Shown here: positions 11,302 through 38,580 of the stretch, piece by piece | How the letters are laid out: every line of letters begins with the position of its first letter | How positions within the stretch are numbered: position 1 is the first letter of the stretch | Origin: Oscillatoriales cyanobacterium PMM_0008 | GTDB taxonomy: Bacteria > Cyanobacteriota > Cyanobacteriia > Cyanobacteriales > Aerosakkonemataceae | DNA length: 43,475 nucleotides | Reading direction: 5' to 3' | NCBI GenBank assembly: GCA_949128025.1 | Contig: CASBRD010000264.1 | Span: 1-43,475 of the forward strand | Program-made: the position numbers and the translations under genes | The notes under the pieces: model-generated | What the model was told of the DNA's origin: nothing | Seen by the model: the letters and a program-made list of their open reading frames with translations, nothing else | Database searches by the model: none

Positions 11302-11454
11302 TTTATATCATGTCCTTACGCATCGGTTACCTAAAAAATTCCTGTTCTTATTCTTATCTGCGTTCATTTGCGTGTATCTGTCTACCCTACGGGAAGGCGA
11401 AGCGCCTACATCTGCGGTAAAAATTTAACCAACGATGACAACAGACAATTTGAC
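11302..11454 (-). repeat. Dispersed repeat of about 150 bp, copy A
   Basis: Read on the minus strand it begins GTCAAATTGTCTGTTGTCAT and includes GGCGCTTCGCC and CCCGTAGGG hairpins. It ends near AGGACATGATATAAA. Copy B is at 16799-16941 and copy C at 38464-38580; a fragment lies at 24411-24455. It fills much of the 370-bp spacer between cbiD and guaA; no gene was seen in that spacer. Confidence 0.85.
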
Positions 11455-11533
11455 GAAATCGCTCTTATGCTATCAAAGCTTCTAAAAATAGAGCCAAAGC
11501 CAGGAATCGAGTTGGTCGAAAGTACTTAGAAAA

Positions 11534-14716: not shown

Positions 14717-14859
14717 GCCACTCAACCCCTGTTTTTGTTTGCGTATTTGCGGTTCGTATCTTAGGACTTACGCACTCTCGTCTGTGGCCCTTGCGCGATG
14801 TACCCCTATCGATCGCGCGATCGTGTCATTCATCTAGCGGCAGAGACACGGATAAGCAC

Positions 14860-15213
14860 AATTTGTTGCGATGGACACTATGTATAGTCCTAGCAAGCAA
14901 TATATTAAACTCTTTGGGATGCGCCTCCTCCTCCTGGCTGAGTTGAATGGCTACTTTGGTTCCAGGACGGTTGCGTGGGAGATATTTGGGCATTCGTAAT
15001 AGTGCTGCTAACTTGACAAATCTTATCTCTATACCTTTACTGGGTTTAGCAGTGTCGGCTTGGCCTGGTGGCACGATTCAGGGTTACGGTGCGGTCTTGT
15101 TACTCGGAGTCGTACTTGGCCTAATTAGTTTGGGCTGTCAGCGGTTTATGAAGGATGTTAATCCCCAGGAGCAGGAGAGCAGGGGAGTAAGATATCCACA
15201 GGTTTTATTTTAA
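14860..15213 (+). pseudogene. Remnant of an MFS transporter, C-terminal part with internal stop
   Basis: In one frame the DNA reads LLRWTLCIVLASNILNSLGCASSSWLS, a TGA at 14944-14946, then MATLVPGRLRGRYLGIRNSAANLTNLISIPLLG and a further hydrophobic segment. SSWLSWMATLVPGRLRGRY is the expected MFS motif, so the TGA replaces a Trp (TGG) codon. Everything before the last few helices is missing. It points toward the adaptor gene at 15235 and is probably a decayed neighbour of that efflux locus. Confidence 0.75.
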
Positions 15214-15237
15214 ATCTAAAATCTAAAATCTAAAATG
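15211..15237 (+). repeat. Heptamer repeat tract overlapping the adaptor start codon
   Basis: TCTAAAA/TAAAATC heptamers run directly into ATGATATTAGG, so the tract occupies the ribosome-binding region of the gene at 15235. No Shine-Dalgarno sequence is visible. Confidence 0.75.
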
Positions 15238-16761
15238 ATATTAGGTGAAGCAGGTAAAAAAAGATTCAAAAACGGAGTTAGACTGTTAGTTTGGTCTGGA
15301 ATATTAGCTGTTGTTAGCGCCGGAGGTTGGCTAGTTTACGTCCAAAGATTGAATCGACCGCCCGAACCTGTTGCAGTGCGTTTAGTAACCGTAGAACTTG
15401 GCACTATTGAAACTACAATTAATGAAAGCGGTACGGTTGAACTGGGCGGTCAACAAACCCTCACATCCCCAACAGAAGGAGCAGTGGAGCGGGTGTTGGT
15501 GACATTGGGCGATCGCGTTCGCTCCGGTCAACAGCTAATCGTCCTACGCAACCCCGATAGACAAACTATCCTCAGTACCCAACAATTAGCAATTCAAAAA
15601 CAAGAACTTACCCTCGCAAGCAATCGCCAAAAAGTTGCTGAAGCTGCCGCTAAACTCAAAGCTTACCAAGAAGAATTTAAAGAAATTATTAAACAGCGAG
15701 ATATTAAACAAAAAAATGACATTGCCACCAAACAATTAGAGATTCGCGAACAGGAATTCACCCTGGCACGCAGCCGCCAAAAACTTAAAGAAGCTGAAGA
15801 AAAGGTGACATCTGAACAACGAAAACTTAAGGATCTGGAAGATTTAGACCGCAGAGGTTTTATTCCCAGAAATGAACTACAAACTCAGCAAGAAGCGGTT
15901 CGCGGCGCTGAATCTGGGCGGCGGGACGCTCAGTTAGCCGTCAGCACCGATACTCTCAAACTTCAACGCCTTGAGATTAAAACCGAACTTATTGCACCGC
16001 AACTGCCAGAAAAAGCGATCGCAGCTCAAAACGACTTGCGGGAGGCTCAGTTAGCTGTCAGCACTGACATTCGGGAACTCCAGCGCCTACAACTGGACTT
16101 GCAAAAAAGTCAGCAGCAACTCCAGGAATCGAGCGTGATTGCGCCAATTAGCGGTAAAGTTCTCAATATTATGGTCAAAGATGGTGATGGAGTCGATCGC
16201 AAGAATAACCTGCTTACTTTAGGCTCACCCGCACAAGAACTGGTAAAACTCCAGTTGTCTACTCTCAATGCCGCTCAAATAAAGTTGGGTCAATTGGCTC
16301 GCATCAGCGTAATTGGCCCAAATCCGCAGATTTACACCGGCAGGGTACAAAGTTTGTATCCCCAAGCAACGACGGGGGAAAAGGAGGGAGAAAACAGTTC
16401 ATCGGGCCGATCGAATCAAGCGACGGTGCCTGCAACGGTAAAATTAGATCAGCCTACAAGCACGCTCATTCCTGGCAGCAAAGTCAATGTAGAGATTATT
16501 TTGCAGCAGCGACAGAATGTAGTTGTTTTGAATACAGAAGCAATTCAACGCGATCGCGCTAAGCCGTTTGTATGGGTGCGAGACTCACAAGGTAAGGCTC
16601 ACAAACGCAGCGTTAATTTGGGTTTAGAGGGGTTAACAACTGTCGAGGTATCCTCTGGTTTGCAAGCTGGGGAACAGATTTTATTGCCTTCTGCTGAGGA
16701 ATCTTTAGAAGAAGGAACGCCAACGATCCCCCAAACCAACTCGGATGAACTAAAAAAATGA
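15235..16761 (+). CDS. HlyD/MacA-type periplasmic adaptor of an efflux system
   Basis: Such proteins bridge an inner-membrane transporter and TolC. The 508-residue protein has an N-terminal membrane anchor (about 15-36), two lipoyl half-motifs (about 68-107, PTEGAVERVLVTLGDRV, and 302-333, APISGKVLNIMVKDGDGV), a long coiled coil between them (about 108-300) and a beta-rich membrane-proximal part ending near 495. The coil is long, with an internal near-repeat (EAQLAVSTDIRELQRL and DAQLAVSTDTLKLQRL). The next gene is the MacB/TolC chimera; no ATPase gene lies nearby. Confidence 0.9.
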   Translation: MILGEAGKKRFKNGVRLLVWSGILAVVSAGGWLVYVQRLNRPPEPVAVRLVTVELGTIETTINESGTVELGGQQTLTSPTEGAVERVLVTLGDRVRSGQQLIVLRNPDRQTILSTQQLAIQKQELTLASNRQKVAEAAAKLKAYQEEFKEIIKQRDIKQKNDIATKQLEIREQEFTLARSRQKLKEAEEKVTSEQRKLKDLEDLDRRGFIPRNELQTQQEAVRGAESGRRDAQLAVSTDTLKLQRLEIKTELIAPQLPEKAIAAQNDLREAQLAVSTDIRELQRLQLDLQKSQQQLQESSVIAPISGKVLNIMVKDGDGVDRKNNLLTLGSPAQELVKLQLSTLNAAQIKLGQLARISVIGPNPQIYTGRVQSLYPQATTGEKEGENSSSGRSNQATVPATVKLDQPTSTLIPGSKVNVEIILQQRQNVVVLNTEAIQRDRAKPFVWVRDSQGKAHKRSVNLGLEGLTTVEVSSGLQAGEQILLPSAEESLEEGTPTIPQTNSDELKK

Positions 16762-16798
16762 TATTGAGAAGTGGCATCATTAGTAGATGAGTGAGATC

Positions 16799-16941
16799 GT
16801 CAAATTGTCTGTTGTCATCGTTGGTTAAATTTTTACCGCAGATGTAGGCGCTTCGCCTTCCCGTAGGGTAGACAGATTAACGCAGATAGGAATAATCACA
16901 CGAATTTTTTAGGTAACGGATGTGTAAGGACATAATATAAA
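16799..16941 (+). repeat. Dispersed repeat of about 150 bp, copy B
   Basis: It starts GTCAAATTGTCTGTTGTCAT and ends near AGGACATAATATAAA, matching copy A over nearly the full length. It separates the adaptor gene from the chimera. A heptamer tract follows directly. Confidence 0.88.
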
Positions 16942-16982: not shown

Positions 16983-19328
16983 ATGAGCCTTTCCGCTTTC
17001 GACCTGATCGTGCTAACCTGCAAATCTCTGCTTGGCAACCCCTTACGTTCTGGTTTAACCACCTTGGGAGTGTTTATGGGTGTAGCAGCGGTGAGTGCAA
17101 CGCTTCAAGTTGGCAACATCAGTCGCGCCGTGATAGAAAAGCAACTAGCAGAACGGGAAGCTCCTCAAGTTAACATATATGCGGACGAACTGAAGTTAGA
17201 CGACCTAGAATTCTTGCGACAGCGGCTGACGGGTTTAAAAGCAATTAGTGCGGCTCAGTGGATGTACCCTTCTCAAACAGTGTTTCGAGATCGGCTGGTT
17301 GAGCCTTTTATATATGCTGTTACGTTAGACCATTTTCTCACATCTGGTAAGCAAAAGATCGCAGGGCGTTTTTTTACTCCAGCCGATTTTGATAACTATC
17401 GACCTGTAGTAGTAATCGATCTATTTCTGGCCGAAAAACTTTTCCAAGGCGAAGATGCGATCGGTCAGCGCATTTATGCAGAAGGCAGACCCTACATCGT
17501 TGTGGGAGTAGTGCCGATCGAAGCAGGTGCGATCGTACAGCCAAAGATTCAGTCTACTATCGTACCCATCCAATTACAGAAAAATCAAGCAGCTATCAAT
17601 AGGGAAAATATTGTCCAAACTACGATAAATAAGCAATCCCCTCAAACAGTTATTCAATCTCCAAATCCTTCATCAGAGTCTCCCATTCCTACACCTAAAA
17701 CTACTTTACAGACACCTGTTGCTACTGCTTCACAACAAGATCCAAATATTACTATATCAAAAGAAGTTTCCGAACAGGAAAAAGAACCAGCGCAAATCAA
17801 TCTTCAGGGTAAGTTGCCATCGTCAAATATCCAAACAAATCTAATTACAGAACATAAACTTTATCATCACTTACCAGTTGGTGTAAATCCTCAAACTGAA
17901 TCTGAAGTAAGCAAACAAGCGGCTCAGTTATTTCCCACAAATACAAAGCAGAACCGACAAGAATCGCCTGCATCTAAACGAAGGCTAGAATTGAGGCTTC
18001 CTGATGTTGTTGTTTTGGCTTTGCAAAATAACAGAGACATCAAGAATGCCTATTTAGAAAGAATAGCACAACGACAAGACCTGGAAGTAGCTGAAAGTAA
18101 ATTTAAACCAACTTTTACACCTGCTGTAGGGGTGTCAGTCGATCGCGCCGAGTCAGGTGGAATTGTTAGAAGCACTGGTAATGTCGGTGTTTCAGCAAGC
18201 GTTGAATTAAGGCTTCCTTCTGGCGGAGATATCAGTTTTGGATGGCAAGCTTCCGCGCCAAACTCTAGCAGCAATCTTTTAAATGTTAGTGGTGTAAATT
18301 CGGTTGGCCAAAATTTACAGCTAAGGTTTAATCAACCTTTGTTGAGAGGTGCGGGACTAAATGTTAATCGAGCTTCGGTTGAAATTGCTCGATTGGCTGA
18401 GAAAGGAAATATCTTAGCTTTGAGAACAACTTTAATCGATACAGTTACTTCGGCTATTTTGGTTTATCGGCAGTTACTTCAGGCTCAAGAACAACTGAAA
18501 ATTGAGGAGCTATCTCTTCAAAGTGCTAAAGAATTCTTGGAAATTAACCAAGTTTTGATTGAGGCTGGTAGGGTGGCACCAGTGGATCTCGTGCAAAATC
18601 AAACGTCGATTGCGAATCAGCAAGTCAGTTTATTATCTGCTAGAAATAATCTGGAAACTTTCCAGCTTAATTTGCTGAAAATCTTAGATATAGACCCGAA
18701 GATAGATATTGTGGCTGTAGAAAATTTAGCGGCTAAACCTCTAAATTTAGATTTAGATAAACTCAGGGAAATAGCCTTACAAAATAGGGCAGATTATTTA
18801 CAAGCACAATTGAGGCTGGATAGAACTAAATTTGAGCAGTTGATAGCAGAAAATAATAAACGGTGGAATCTGGATTTTGTGGCAAGTTACGGTAATGAAA
18901 TAGACAGCACAAACCAAGTTAGTGCGGGACTAGCTTTCACTCGTACTTTTGGCGATCGCACTTTGGAACAAGCTGTGGTGCGAAGCCGAGTAAACCTCCA
19001 ACAAGCCGAGAATAATTTGCGGGAGTTTCGCGAAACTTTAAACTTAGAATTAATAGATGAAGTTAAAAATGTGAATTTAAGTTTTGAGCAGGTTAAGCTT
19101 GCTCAACAAGCTAGAGAGTTAGCAGAAAAAAAACTAAATATAGAAAAAGAAAAGCTGAGGTTAGGTAGGTCGCAAATTTTCCAAGTTTTAAGTTTTCAGG
19201 ATGATTTAGTAGCGGCAAAAAATACCGAATTGAATGCCATCATAGATTATCTCAATGCTTTAACTCGCCTCGATAAAACCGTGGGGACTACGCTAGAAAC
19301 TTGGCAAGTTACAATAGAAACTAAGTAG
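16983..19328 (+). CDS. Chimeric MacB-permease N-terminus fused to a TolC-family channel
   Basis: The 781-residue protein joins two parts normally made separately. Residues 1-196 match the start of a MacB/DevC-type ABC permease: NPLRSGLTTLGVFMGVAAVSATLQVG (TM about 23-42) and a periplasmic core ending YIVVGVVPIEAGAIVQPKIQ. The remaining FtsX membrane helices are absent. Residues about 197-335 are a Gln/Pro/Ser-rich linker. From about 336 (LRLPDVVVLALQNNRDI) to 781 it is a TolC-type outer-membrane efflux protein with the usual helical repeats. The frame is open throughout. It could be an inner-membrane-anchored TolC, or the product of a deletion. The adaptor gene is upstream; no ATPase is present. 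Confidence 0.88.
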   Translation: MSLSAFDLIVLTCKSLLGNPLRSGLTTLGVFMGVAAVSATLQVGNISRAVIEKQLAEREAPQVNIYADELKLDDLEFLRQRLTGLKAISAAQWMYPSQTVFRDRLVEPFIYAVTLDHFLTSGKQKIAGRFFTPADFDNYRPVVVIDLFLAEKLFQGEDAIGQRIYAEGRPYIVVGVVPIEAGAIVQPKIQSTIVPIQLQKNQAAINRENIVQTTINKQSPQTVIQSPNPSSESPIPTPKTTLQTPVATASQQDPNITISKEVSEQEKEPAQINLQGKLPSSNIQTNLITEHKLYHHLPVGVNPQTESEVSKQAAQLFPTNTKQNRQESPASKRRLELRLPDVVVLALQNNRDIKNAYLERIAQRQDLEVAESKFKPTFTPAVGVSVDRAESGGIVRSTGNVGVSASVELRLPSGGDISFGWQASAPNSSSNLLNVSGVNSVGQNLQLRFNQPLLRGAGLNVNRASVEIARLAEKGNILALRTTLIDTVTSAILVYRQLLQAQEQLKIEELSLQSAKEFLEINQVLIEAGRVAPVDLVQNQTSIANQQVSLLSARNNLETFQLNLLKILDIDPKIDIVAVENLAAKPLNLDLDKLREIALQNRADYLQAQLRLDRTKFEQLIAENNKRWNLDFVASYGNEIDSTNQVSAGLAFTRTFGDRTLEQAVVRSRVNLQQAENNLREFRETLNLELIDEVKNVNLSFEQVKLAQQARELAEKKLNIEKEKLRLGRSQIFQVLSFQDDLVAAKNTELNAIIDYLNALTRLDKTVGTTLETWQVTIETK

Positions 19329-36539: not shown

Positions 36540-38459
36540 ATGGTGCGCTTAAAACTGTGGCAATGGATCGTATTAGCAACGCCGATCGCAACGATCGTCA
36601 CTTTCCTAATGGTATCGGCAGGATTGCAGATCCAGTCGTGGGGCATTAGTTGGATCTGGGCGGTATTCACCTTTATCTTAGTGGGCTGGCGTTGGCTGCT
36701 AGTCAGATGGACTCAACCGATGGTAGAACAGATGGAAGCTGTAATGGCAGAAGTCAGCAAAGAACTGGAATCCACCGCAGCCGATACCGCCGCGCTACCA
36801 GCAGGAAATGACGCCATTACTAGAGCAGAAACCGCACTACAAGATATCCTGAAGACTGCACAGAACGATCGCGCAATTTGGGAAGATTGGCCAACCTTTT
36901 GGACGCGATGCCAAGATCTCGTGGTTGCGATCGCACATATTTATCATCCAGAAGTAAAATATCCTCTGCTTTCCATCTACGTTCCCCAAGCTTACGGACT
37001 GATTCGGGGCACAATGGATGACTTAGATCGGTGGATGCAAAAACTATCTCCAGCCCTCAATCAAGTCACCGTTGGGCAAGCATACCAGGCTTATGAAGTA
37101 TATCGCAAACTAGAACCATCCGCTCGCAAACTCTGGCAAGTATGGAACTGGGCCCAGTGGTTATTGAACCCGGCAGTAGCGGTAGCAAAAGTTGCCAGTC
37201 AGCGTTACAGTAACCGCGCCACTCAGGAACTGCTGGTAAACTTGAGCCAGCTGATGCGGTCAGCCGCGCTGAGGAACTTATGTAAGCAAGCTGTAGCCCT
37301 CTACGGAGGCGCTACCCTGCCAGTTGCAGAATTTTCGGTTTCCACACCTACATTACCGAAAGCGAAGACTCAAACCCTACGAGAAATCCTATCACAAGCA
37401 GAACCTGTAGCGGAGGTTGAGGAGAAACCCGTCAATATTCTGCTGGCGGGAAGAACGGGATCTGGAAAAAGCAGCTTGATTAACACCCTGTTTCAGGCAG
37501 AATTAGCAGCAGTAGATATTTTACCAAGTACCGATCGCATTCAGAATTATCGCTGGCAAGCCGAAAGCACAGAAACACTTACCCTTTGGGATACTCCCGG
37601 CTACGAACAAGCCAACCGTGCAGACTTACGAGAGCTAGTACTAGATTATGCCAAAAATGCCGATCTGCTGCTGTTAGTCACCCCGGCGATCGATCCTGCC
37701 TTGCAAATGGATGTAGACTTTCTCAAAGATATCAAAGCCGCAGTTGCAGACTTACCTGCGATCGCAATTGTCACCCAAGTCGATCGTCTGCGTCCGATCC
37801 GCGAATGGCAACCACCTTATGATTGGGAATGGGGCGATCGGCCCAAAGAAATTGCCATTCGAGAAGCTACCGAATATCGGCAAAAGCAACTAGGTGAGTT
37901 TTGCGATTTTGTTTTACCAGTCGTTACAGGCGATCTAAAAACGGGTCGAACCGCTTGGGGAGAAGACACGCTATCCTTAGCATTGGTGGAAGCCATTTCT
38001 CCTCTCAAGCAAATTCGCCTGGCCCGATTTTTGCGTAACTTAGACGCCCGTGCGATCGCAGCTGCTAAAATCATCGATCGCTACACATTCCAAATGGCAA
38101 CAACCCAAGGATTAACTACACTAATCAAAAGTCCCGTTCTCAGATTCATTTCTACCCTATCCACAGGATCGCCAACCCTAGCTTATCTACTAGCAGAACA
38201 AATTCCCGTAGAACAGTTGCCTGTAGTTATTGGCAAACTCCAGATGGCTTATGACCTCAACTCACTTTTGAATACAGACGACGCCAACAAACTTAACTTC
38301 GATCTGCTATCTCTGTGGCCCCTGCTGCTCGAAAACTCAGATTTACCCGATCGCAACGCCTGGGCATTTGGTCACGCCCTAGTCGAGTACTGGACTGCGA
38401 ATCTGACGATTCCACAACTGCGAGAGAGATTTGAATATTATCTCAAATTACATGAGTGA
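36540..38459 (+). CDS. Membrane-anchored Era/IRG-like GTPase
   Basis: The 639-residue protein has two N-terminal membrane helices (about 8-28 and 37-54). A helical region (about 60-285) follows. The GTPase core has G1 AGRTGSGKSSL (about 302-312), G3 DTPGYE (about 351-356) and G4 TQVD (about 412-415). The C-terminal part (about 495-639) is helical. The role is unknown; dynamin- or IRG-type proteins are the nearest general class. Copy C of the dispersed repeat starts five bases after the stop. Confidence 0.85.
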   Translation: MVRLKLWQWIVLATPIATIVTFLMVSAGLQIQSWGISWIWAVFTFILVGWRWLLVRWTQPMVEQMEAVMAEVSKELESTAADTAALPAGNDAITRAETALQDILKTAQNDRAIWEDWPTFWTRCQDLVVAIAHIYHPEVKYPLLSIYVPQAYGLIRGTMDDLDRWMQKLSPALNQVTVGQAYQAYEVYRKLEPSARKLWQVWNWAQWLLNPAVAVAKVASQRYSNRATQELLVNLSQLMRSAALRNLCKQAVALYGGATLPVAEFSVSTPTLPKAKTQTLREILSQAEPVAEVEEKPVNILLAGRTGSGKSSLINTLFQAELAAVDILPSTDRIQNYRWQAESTETLTLWDTPGYEQANRADLRELVLDYAKNADLLLLVTPAIDPALQMDVDFLKDIKAAVADLPAIAIVTQVDRLRPIREWQPPYDWEWGDRPKEIAIREATEYRQKQLGEFCDFVLPVVTGDLKTGRTAWGEDTLSLALVEAISPLKQIRLARFLRNLDARAIAAAKIIDRYTFQMATTQGLTTLIKSPVLRFISTLSTGSPTLAYLLAEQIPVEQLPVVIGKLQMAYDLNSLLNTDDANKLNFDLLSLWPLLLENSDLPDRNAWAFGHALVEYWTANLTIPQLRERFEYYLKLHE

Positions 38460-38463
38460 TATC

Positions 38464-38580
38464 GTCAAATTGTCTGTTGTCATCGTTGGTTAAATTTTTA
38501 CCGCAGATGTAGGCGCTTCGCCTTCCCGTAGGGTAGACAGATGAACGCAGATAAACGCAGATAAGAATAAGAACAAGATT
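38464..38580 (+). repeat. Dispersed repeat of about 150 bp, copy C (shorter)
   Basis: It matches copies A and B from GTCAAATTGTCTG through the GGCGCTTCGCC and CCCGTAGGG motifs to GAATAAGAACAAGATT, then diverges. It begins just after the GTPase stop codon. Confidence 0.85.

What the first reader, a model, noticed from the sequence alone, without database searches (positions are those of the whole stretch)
16983..19328. Single-chain MacB permease/TolC chimera
The first 196 residues are the anchor and part of the periplasmic core of a MacB/DevC permease; residues from about 336 are a full TolC family channel, joined by a 140-residue Gln/Pro-rich linker. The three later permease helices and the ATPase are absent. 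The adaptor is encoded just upstream. Normally these parts are separate proteins in two membranes. Either a deletion created a dead fusion, or the TolC is now tethered to the inner membrane across the periplasm. The long intact frame argues against simple decay.
Basis: partly seen in the sequence, partly recalled or inferred. Interest (0 to 1): 0.68.

Follow-up and report, generated by a model that had tools for sequence, protein, structure and literature searches.

The report
Deletion-fused permease and TolC genes
In one Argonema cyanobacterium a single recent 1,084-base deletion glued the front half of an efflux-pump permease gene to the neighbouring outer-membrane channel gene; a sister species still has the two intact genes, so this is most likely a broken pump rather than a new kind of machine.

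Summary
The 781-aa frame at 16983-19328 is real: MacB/DevC permease residues 1-181, then a TolC-family channel. The sister genome G002 (Argonema antarcticum A004/B2, ~96% identical, collinear) keeps two separate genes: a 384-aa permease and a 658-aa TolC with a signal-peptide-like N-terminus. The window differs by one clean 1,084-bp deletion with a 4-bp GTGC microhomology at 17527-17530. It removed half of the Porter subdomain, TM2-4, the coupling helix, the spacer, and TolC's start and signal sequence. The "linker" is the native N-terminal extension of this TolC. The missing ATPase is ancestral: almost no relative in the order carries one at this locus. The locus is eroding in this family: a second Argonema has lost all three genes, another relative keeps only a TolC stub, and the neighbouring MFS gene is a remnant. 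A second, independent fusion of the same type (G130) has frameshifts. No intact second fusion appeared in searches of ~870 genomes. The open frame is weak evidence for function because the fusion is young. Best reading: a recent dead-end deletion fusion. A tethered TolC is not excluded but unlikely (~6%).

The parts
16983..19328 (+). Fusion ORF, 781 aa: permease N-terminal half joined in frame to signal-less TolC
16983..17526 (+). Permease-derived part: TM1/stalk, first Porter beta-alpha-beta, most of Sabre (residues 1-181)
   Evidence: 97% aa identical to L033:4233-5387; aligns to MacB 5lil 276-454; element map from the model of the G002 permease
17527..17530 (.). Deletion junction, GTGC present at both parental breakpoints; 1084 bp missing relative to G002 (L033)
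17531..17987 (+). Gln/Thr/Pro/Ser-rich segment = native N-terminal extension of the parental TolC, downstream of its lost signal sequence
17988..19325 (+). TolC/OEP domain (residues 336-781), two OEP repeats, alpha-beta pattern of an outer-membrane factor
15235..16761 (+). Intact periplasmic adaptor (HlyD/RND_mfp family) of the same pump
16772..16941 (.). Dispersed ~170-bp repeat (about 40 similar places in the genome) in the adaptor-fusion spacer; 70 unrelated bp sit here in G002
14845..15213 (+). MFS transporter remnant with in-frame stop, upstream of the adaptor; intact (519 aa) in G001

Best explanation
The ORF is the product of a single recent deletion of 1,084 bp inside an adaptor-permease-TolC operon for a MacB/DevC-type tripartite efflux or export pump. 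Shown: the deletion relative to the sister genome, its breakpoints and what it removed. Inferred: it arose by microhomology-mediated (illegitimate) recombination at GTGC. Inferred: the pump is dead, because the permease lost the second half of its Porter subdomain, TM2-TM4 and the coupling helix that receives ATPase force, while TolC lost its own start codon and cleavable signal. If translated, TM1 would act as an uncleaved signal anchor. It would place the TolC part in the periplasm, attached to a permease remnant that probably does not fold, and the protein is most likely degraded or non-productive. The frame stays open because the event is young, in a family where this locus is being lost repeatedly.
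For: G002 has separate 384-aa permease and 658-aa TolC genes in an otherwise collinear region. One clean 1084-bp gap with 4-bp microhomology; 1084 mod 3 = 1 equals the frame offset between the parents. The deleted coding segments occur nowhere else in the genome; only dispersed spacer repeats match. Sister G001 has an intact MFS gene followed directly by moaA, with all three pump genes gone. G005 keeps adaptor and permease but only a ~76-residue TolC stub. Six other family genomes lack the close homologue. Independent fusion in G130: an 892-bp deletion relative to G168, then -1 and +4 frameshifts. Only residues equivalent to MacB up to about 454-458 remain; the second Porter motif of A. actinomycetemcomitans MacB is 466-503 (PMC5985334). 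AlphaFold gives the remnant pLDDT about 25-67 against 64-95 for the same residues in the whole permease. Pairwise omega with G002: permease part 0.70 and linker 0.90, against adaptor 0.17.
Against: The frame is intact, with no secondary lesion. The junction is in phase (a 1-in-3 chance). TM1 happens to replace the lost signal in the right topology. The TolC domain still shows omega 0.20 and no excess of derived changes on the window's side (11 against 15 on the G002 side), though most of that divergence may predate the deletion. The omega of the permease part rests on about 11 substitutions. Low pLDDT can also reflect a shallow alignment. Two independent fusions at almost the same place are a mild coincidence.
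Confidence: 0.88

Rival explanations
1. Functional tethered TolC: the fusion is expressed, TM1 anchors it in the inner membrane, and the ~150-residue flexible segment spans the periplasm so the TolC part still inserts in the outer membrane as a trimer, working with the adaptor or another transporter.
For: Frame open; TM1 N-in/C-out topology is compatible (inference from MacB topology); the linker is long enough in extended form (own estimate); adaptor intact; OEP part conserved and modelled at high pLDDT.
Against: No relative preserves an intact fusion. The only analogue, G130, is frameshifted. Permease coupling parts are gone and the Porter subdomain is halved. The fusion is too young for its open frame to mean selection.
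Confidence: 0.06
2. Assembly artefact: the genome really has separate permease and tolC genes and a draft-assembly misjoin produced the chimera.
For: Draft of 469 contigs; the deleted spacer contains dispersed repeats.
Against: The breakpoints lie inside unique coding sequence on both sides and share only 4 bp, far shorter than an assembler overlap; the missing coding DNA is not found on any other contig. An independent deletion of the same type exists in another genus.
Confidence: 0.06

Closest known systems
MacAB-TolC (type VII ABC tripartite efflux pump; PDB 5LIL, 5NIK)
   Same: Adaptor, MacB-fold permease and TolC family parts; the parental permease model matches MacB structures (Foldseek E ~1e-24).
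   Different: MacB carries its ATPase and permease in one chain with four TM helices; here the ATPase is not at the locus and three TM helices plus half the Porter are deleted.
Cyanobacterial DevBCA-HgdD and related adaptor-permease-ATPase plus TolC systems
   Same: Separate adaptor, DevC-like permease and TolC genes in relatives; in G561 a complete ATPase-adaptor-permease-TolC gene run.
   Different: In the window's order the ATPase gene is usually elsewhere; in the window permease and TolC are fused by deletion. Orthology to DevBCA itself was not tested.
Intact orthologous locus of Argonema antarcticum A004/B2 (L033)
   Same: Gene order, 96-98% nucleotide identity, same linker and TolC.
   Different: Permease and TolC are separate full-length genes; 1084 bp more.
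Permease2-TolC deletion fusion in G130 (L045:3683-5038)
   Same: N-terminal permease half fused in frame to signal-less TolC by a clean deletion (892 bp).
   Different: Different breakpoints, in a tandem-permease locus, and frameshifted, hence a pseudogene.

Membership tests
MacB/DevC-type (type VII) ABC permease | Four transmembrane helices with the periplasmic domain between TM1 and TM2 | tested here: not met
   One hydrophobic helix (23-41); parent has four
MacB/DevC-type (type VII) ABC permease | Complete periplasmic core (two Porter motifs flanking Sabre) | tested here: not met
   Ends at the equivalent of MacB ~454-458; second Porter motif 466-503 missing
MacB/DevC-type (type VII) ABC permease | MacB_PCD sequence signature | tested here: met
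   PF12704 E 3.3e-22 on residues 23-202
MacB/DevC-type (type VII) ABC permease | Dedicated ATPase encoded at the locus | tested here: not met
   None in the window; none at the locus in relatives examined from the order except L061, on the opposite strand. Nearest MacB-class ATPase is beside another permease on C309
TolC / outer membrane factor | Two OEP repeats with the OMF alpha-beta pattern | tested here: met
   PF02321 two stretches, E 8.7e-40; predicted elements at residues 335-773
TolC / outer membrane factor | Cleavable N-terminal signal peptide | tested here: not met
   The hydrophobic N-terminal segment of the G002 TolC (residues 18-36) lies within the deleted part; cleavage itself not tested
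TolC / outer membrane factor | Trimer in the outer membrane | not testable with these tools
   needs fractionation or a solved structure
Deletion-derived fusion pseudogene | Intact separate parents in a close relative and one simple event explaining the junction | tested here: met
Deletion-derived fusion pseudogene | Further inactivating lesions in the fusion itself | tested here: not met
   Frame open in the window; lesions only in the independent G130 fusion
Deletion-derived fusion pseudogene | Relaxed selection after the event | tested here: inconclusive
   omega 0.70 in the permease part and 0.90 in the linker, from few substitutions; 0.20 in OEP, mostly older divergence

The most novel reading that the evidence does not exclude
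The deletion created a working inner-membrane-anchored TolC, a one-chain bridge between both membranes, tolerated or selected in this Argonema lineage.
Probability: 0.06. Interest if true: 0.7.

Novelty: new member of a known kind. Interest (0 to 1): 0.2.

Why it matters
As decay, it is a well-resolved snapshot of how an export operon is lost: intact, fused, stub and fully deleted states all exist among near relatives. It warns that automatic annotation would call this an intact 'TolC family protein' or a novel domain architecture. If the fusion were functional, it would test whether TolC biogenesis tolerates an uncleaved inner-membrane anchor.

Tried and rejected
A fusion conserved in relatives: rejected; the 60-relative, order-level (391 genomes), class-level (390 genomes) and G130-family scans show separate frames except in G000 and G130. 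Match lists of the large scans were truncated or thresholded, so weaker or unlisted fusions could be missed. Long 'open frames' in G171, G217, G561 and G580 looked like further fusions but are separate genes. A second copy of the permease or deleted segment elsewhere in the genome: not found. The genome-contig scan returned only the A. antarcticum locus. A missing ATPase caused by the event: rejected, ancestral. A sharply bounded recombination tract explaining the low adaptor divergence: the windowed mismatch profile is mosaic, so this was left open. A first breakpoint script used a wrong anchor and was redone. Papers on natural MacB-TolC fusions: none evident in the one library search made.

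Full report
OBSERVATION. The frame at 16983-19328 is open for 781 aa. Pfam places MacB_PCD at 23-202 and OEP at 341-568 plus a second OEP stretch. NCBIfam agrees: a TolC family match at 441-769 and weak ADOP/MacB permease matches at the N-terminus, all below curated cut-offs. The best solved relatives of the N-terminus are MacB chains. The adaptor at 15235-16761 is intact.

ORIGIN. Searching relatives gave the decisive comparison. Genus-mate G002 has a contig of 153,960 bp that matches Argonema antarcticum A004/B2 NZ_JAIQZN010000003.1 in length and content. It is collinear with the window at ~96-98% identity but holds two genes: a 384-aa permease (L033:4233-5387) and a 658-aa TolC (L033:5686-7662). 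The window lacks exactly 1,084 bp. Left parent ...GAAGCAG-GTGC-TAAGG, right parent ...GCAAA-GTGC-GATCG, window ...GAAGCAG-GTGC-GATCG. So 4 bp of microhomology lie at window 17527-17530. 1084 mod 3 is 1, which is the frame offset of the two parental genes, so the result is in frame. The breakpoints are in unique coding sequence, and the missing coding DNA is not elsewhere in the genome. This argues against a repeat-driven assembly misjoin, although reads were not available.

WHAT WAS LOST. In the modelled parental permease the order is TM1/stalk, Porter part 1, Sabre, Porter part 2 (205-243), TM2 (246-287), coupling helix, TM3, TM4 (domain names assigned by analogy with MacB). The model matches MacB structures. 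The review PMC5985334 gives the A. actinomycetemcomitans MacB Porter as 306-346 plus 466-503 around Sabre 347-465. It says the major coupling helix pushes TM2 to transmit ATPase force. Window residue 178 aligns to MacB 454, so the fusion keeps Porter part 1 and most of Sabre and loses everything after. AlphaFold gives residues 1-180 pLDDT about 25-67 in the fusion and 64-95 in the whole permease, while the TolC part models well; alignment depth is a caveat. The TolC side lost its start and its hydrophobic N-terminal segment, which sits at residues 18-36 of the G002 protein. The Gln/Pro-rich linker is inherited from that TolC. It contains no Met, so no ATG-started stand-alone TolC can be made; one TTG codon exists at residue 278.

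THE ATPASE. About 25 relatives' loci were scanned with several kb of flank. Only L061 showed an ATPase gene, on the opposite strand. A more distant member of the class, G561, has ATPase-adaptor-permease-TolC in one run. In the window's genome the closest MacB-class ATPase is at C309, beside another adaptor and permease. The lack of an ATPase is thus ancestral and not part of this event.

LOCUS EROSION. G001, by size the A. galeatum genome (6.9 Mb; PMC9065122), has the pentapeptide gene, an intact MFS gene and moaA, with the three pump genes gone. G005 has adaptor and permease but a stub of TolC. Other family members lack the close homologue. The MFS gene next to the operon is a stop-containing remnant in the window and is truncated differently in G002. 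In another family, G130 carries an independent 892-bp deletion fusion of the same type relative to G168, followed by -1 and +4 frameshifts.

SELECTION. Pairwise omega (window against G002) is 0.17 for the adaptor, 0.70 for permease residues 1-180 (7.5 nonsynonymous and 3.5 synonymous changes), 0.90 for the linker and 0.20 for the OEP part; neighbours are 0.08-0.20. Four of six permease changes are polarised to the window's branch and cluster in residues 91-106. The OEP value mostly reflects time before the deletion, and window-derived changes in TolC (11) do not exceed G002-derived ones (15). With at most ~36 substitutions on the window's branch, a neutral frame of this length stays stop-free with probability 0.22. 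The open frame therefore neither proves nor excludes function.

CONCLUSION. The simplest account is a young deletion fusion that ended a tripartite pump already dispensable in this family. A tethered TolC remains possible at about 6%. Nothing here lies outside known genome-decay processes; the value is in the clean reconstruction.

Noticed in passing
L045:2954-6099 (G130): Independent, frameshifted permease2-TolC deletion fusion next to a permease1 with an in-frame stop; genus-mate G168 (L067) has tandem permeases and an intact TolC.
   Followed up: yes
window 16772-16941, also 11302-11472 and 38449-38553: A dispersed ~170-bp repeat with about 40 similar places in this genome (also many in G001) lies between adaptor and fusion; no unusual RNA folding was seen (z 0.87).
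   Followed up: partly
window 14845-15213: Remnant of an MFS transporter gene with in-frame stop; intact in G001, truncated at another point in G002.
   Followed up: partly
L086:425-5591 (G561): Complete ATPase-adaptor-permease-TolC gene run, a likely full version of this pump.
   Followed up: no
window 17253-17300 (fusion residues 91-106): Four window-derived amino-acid changes clustered within 16 residues of the permease remnant.
   Followed up: no
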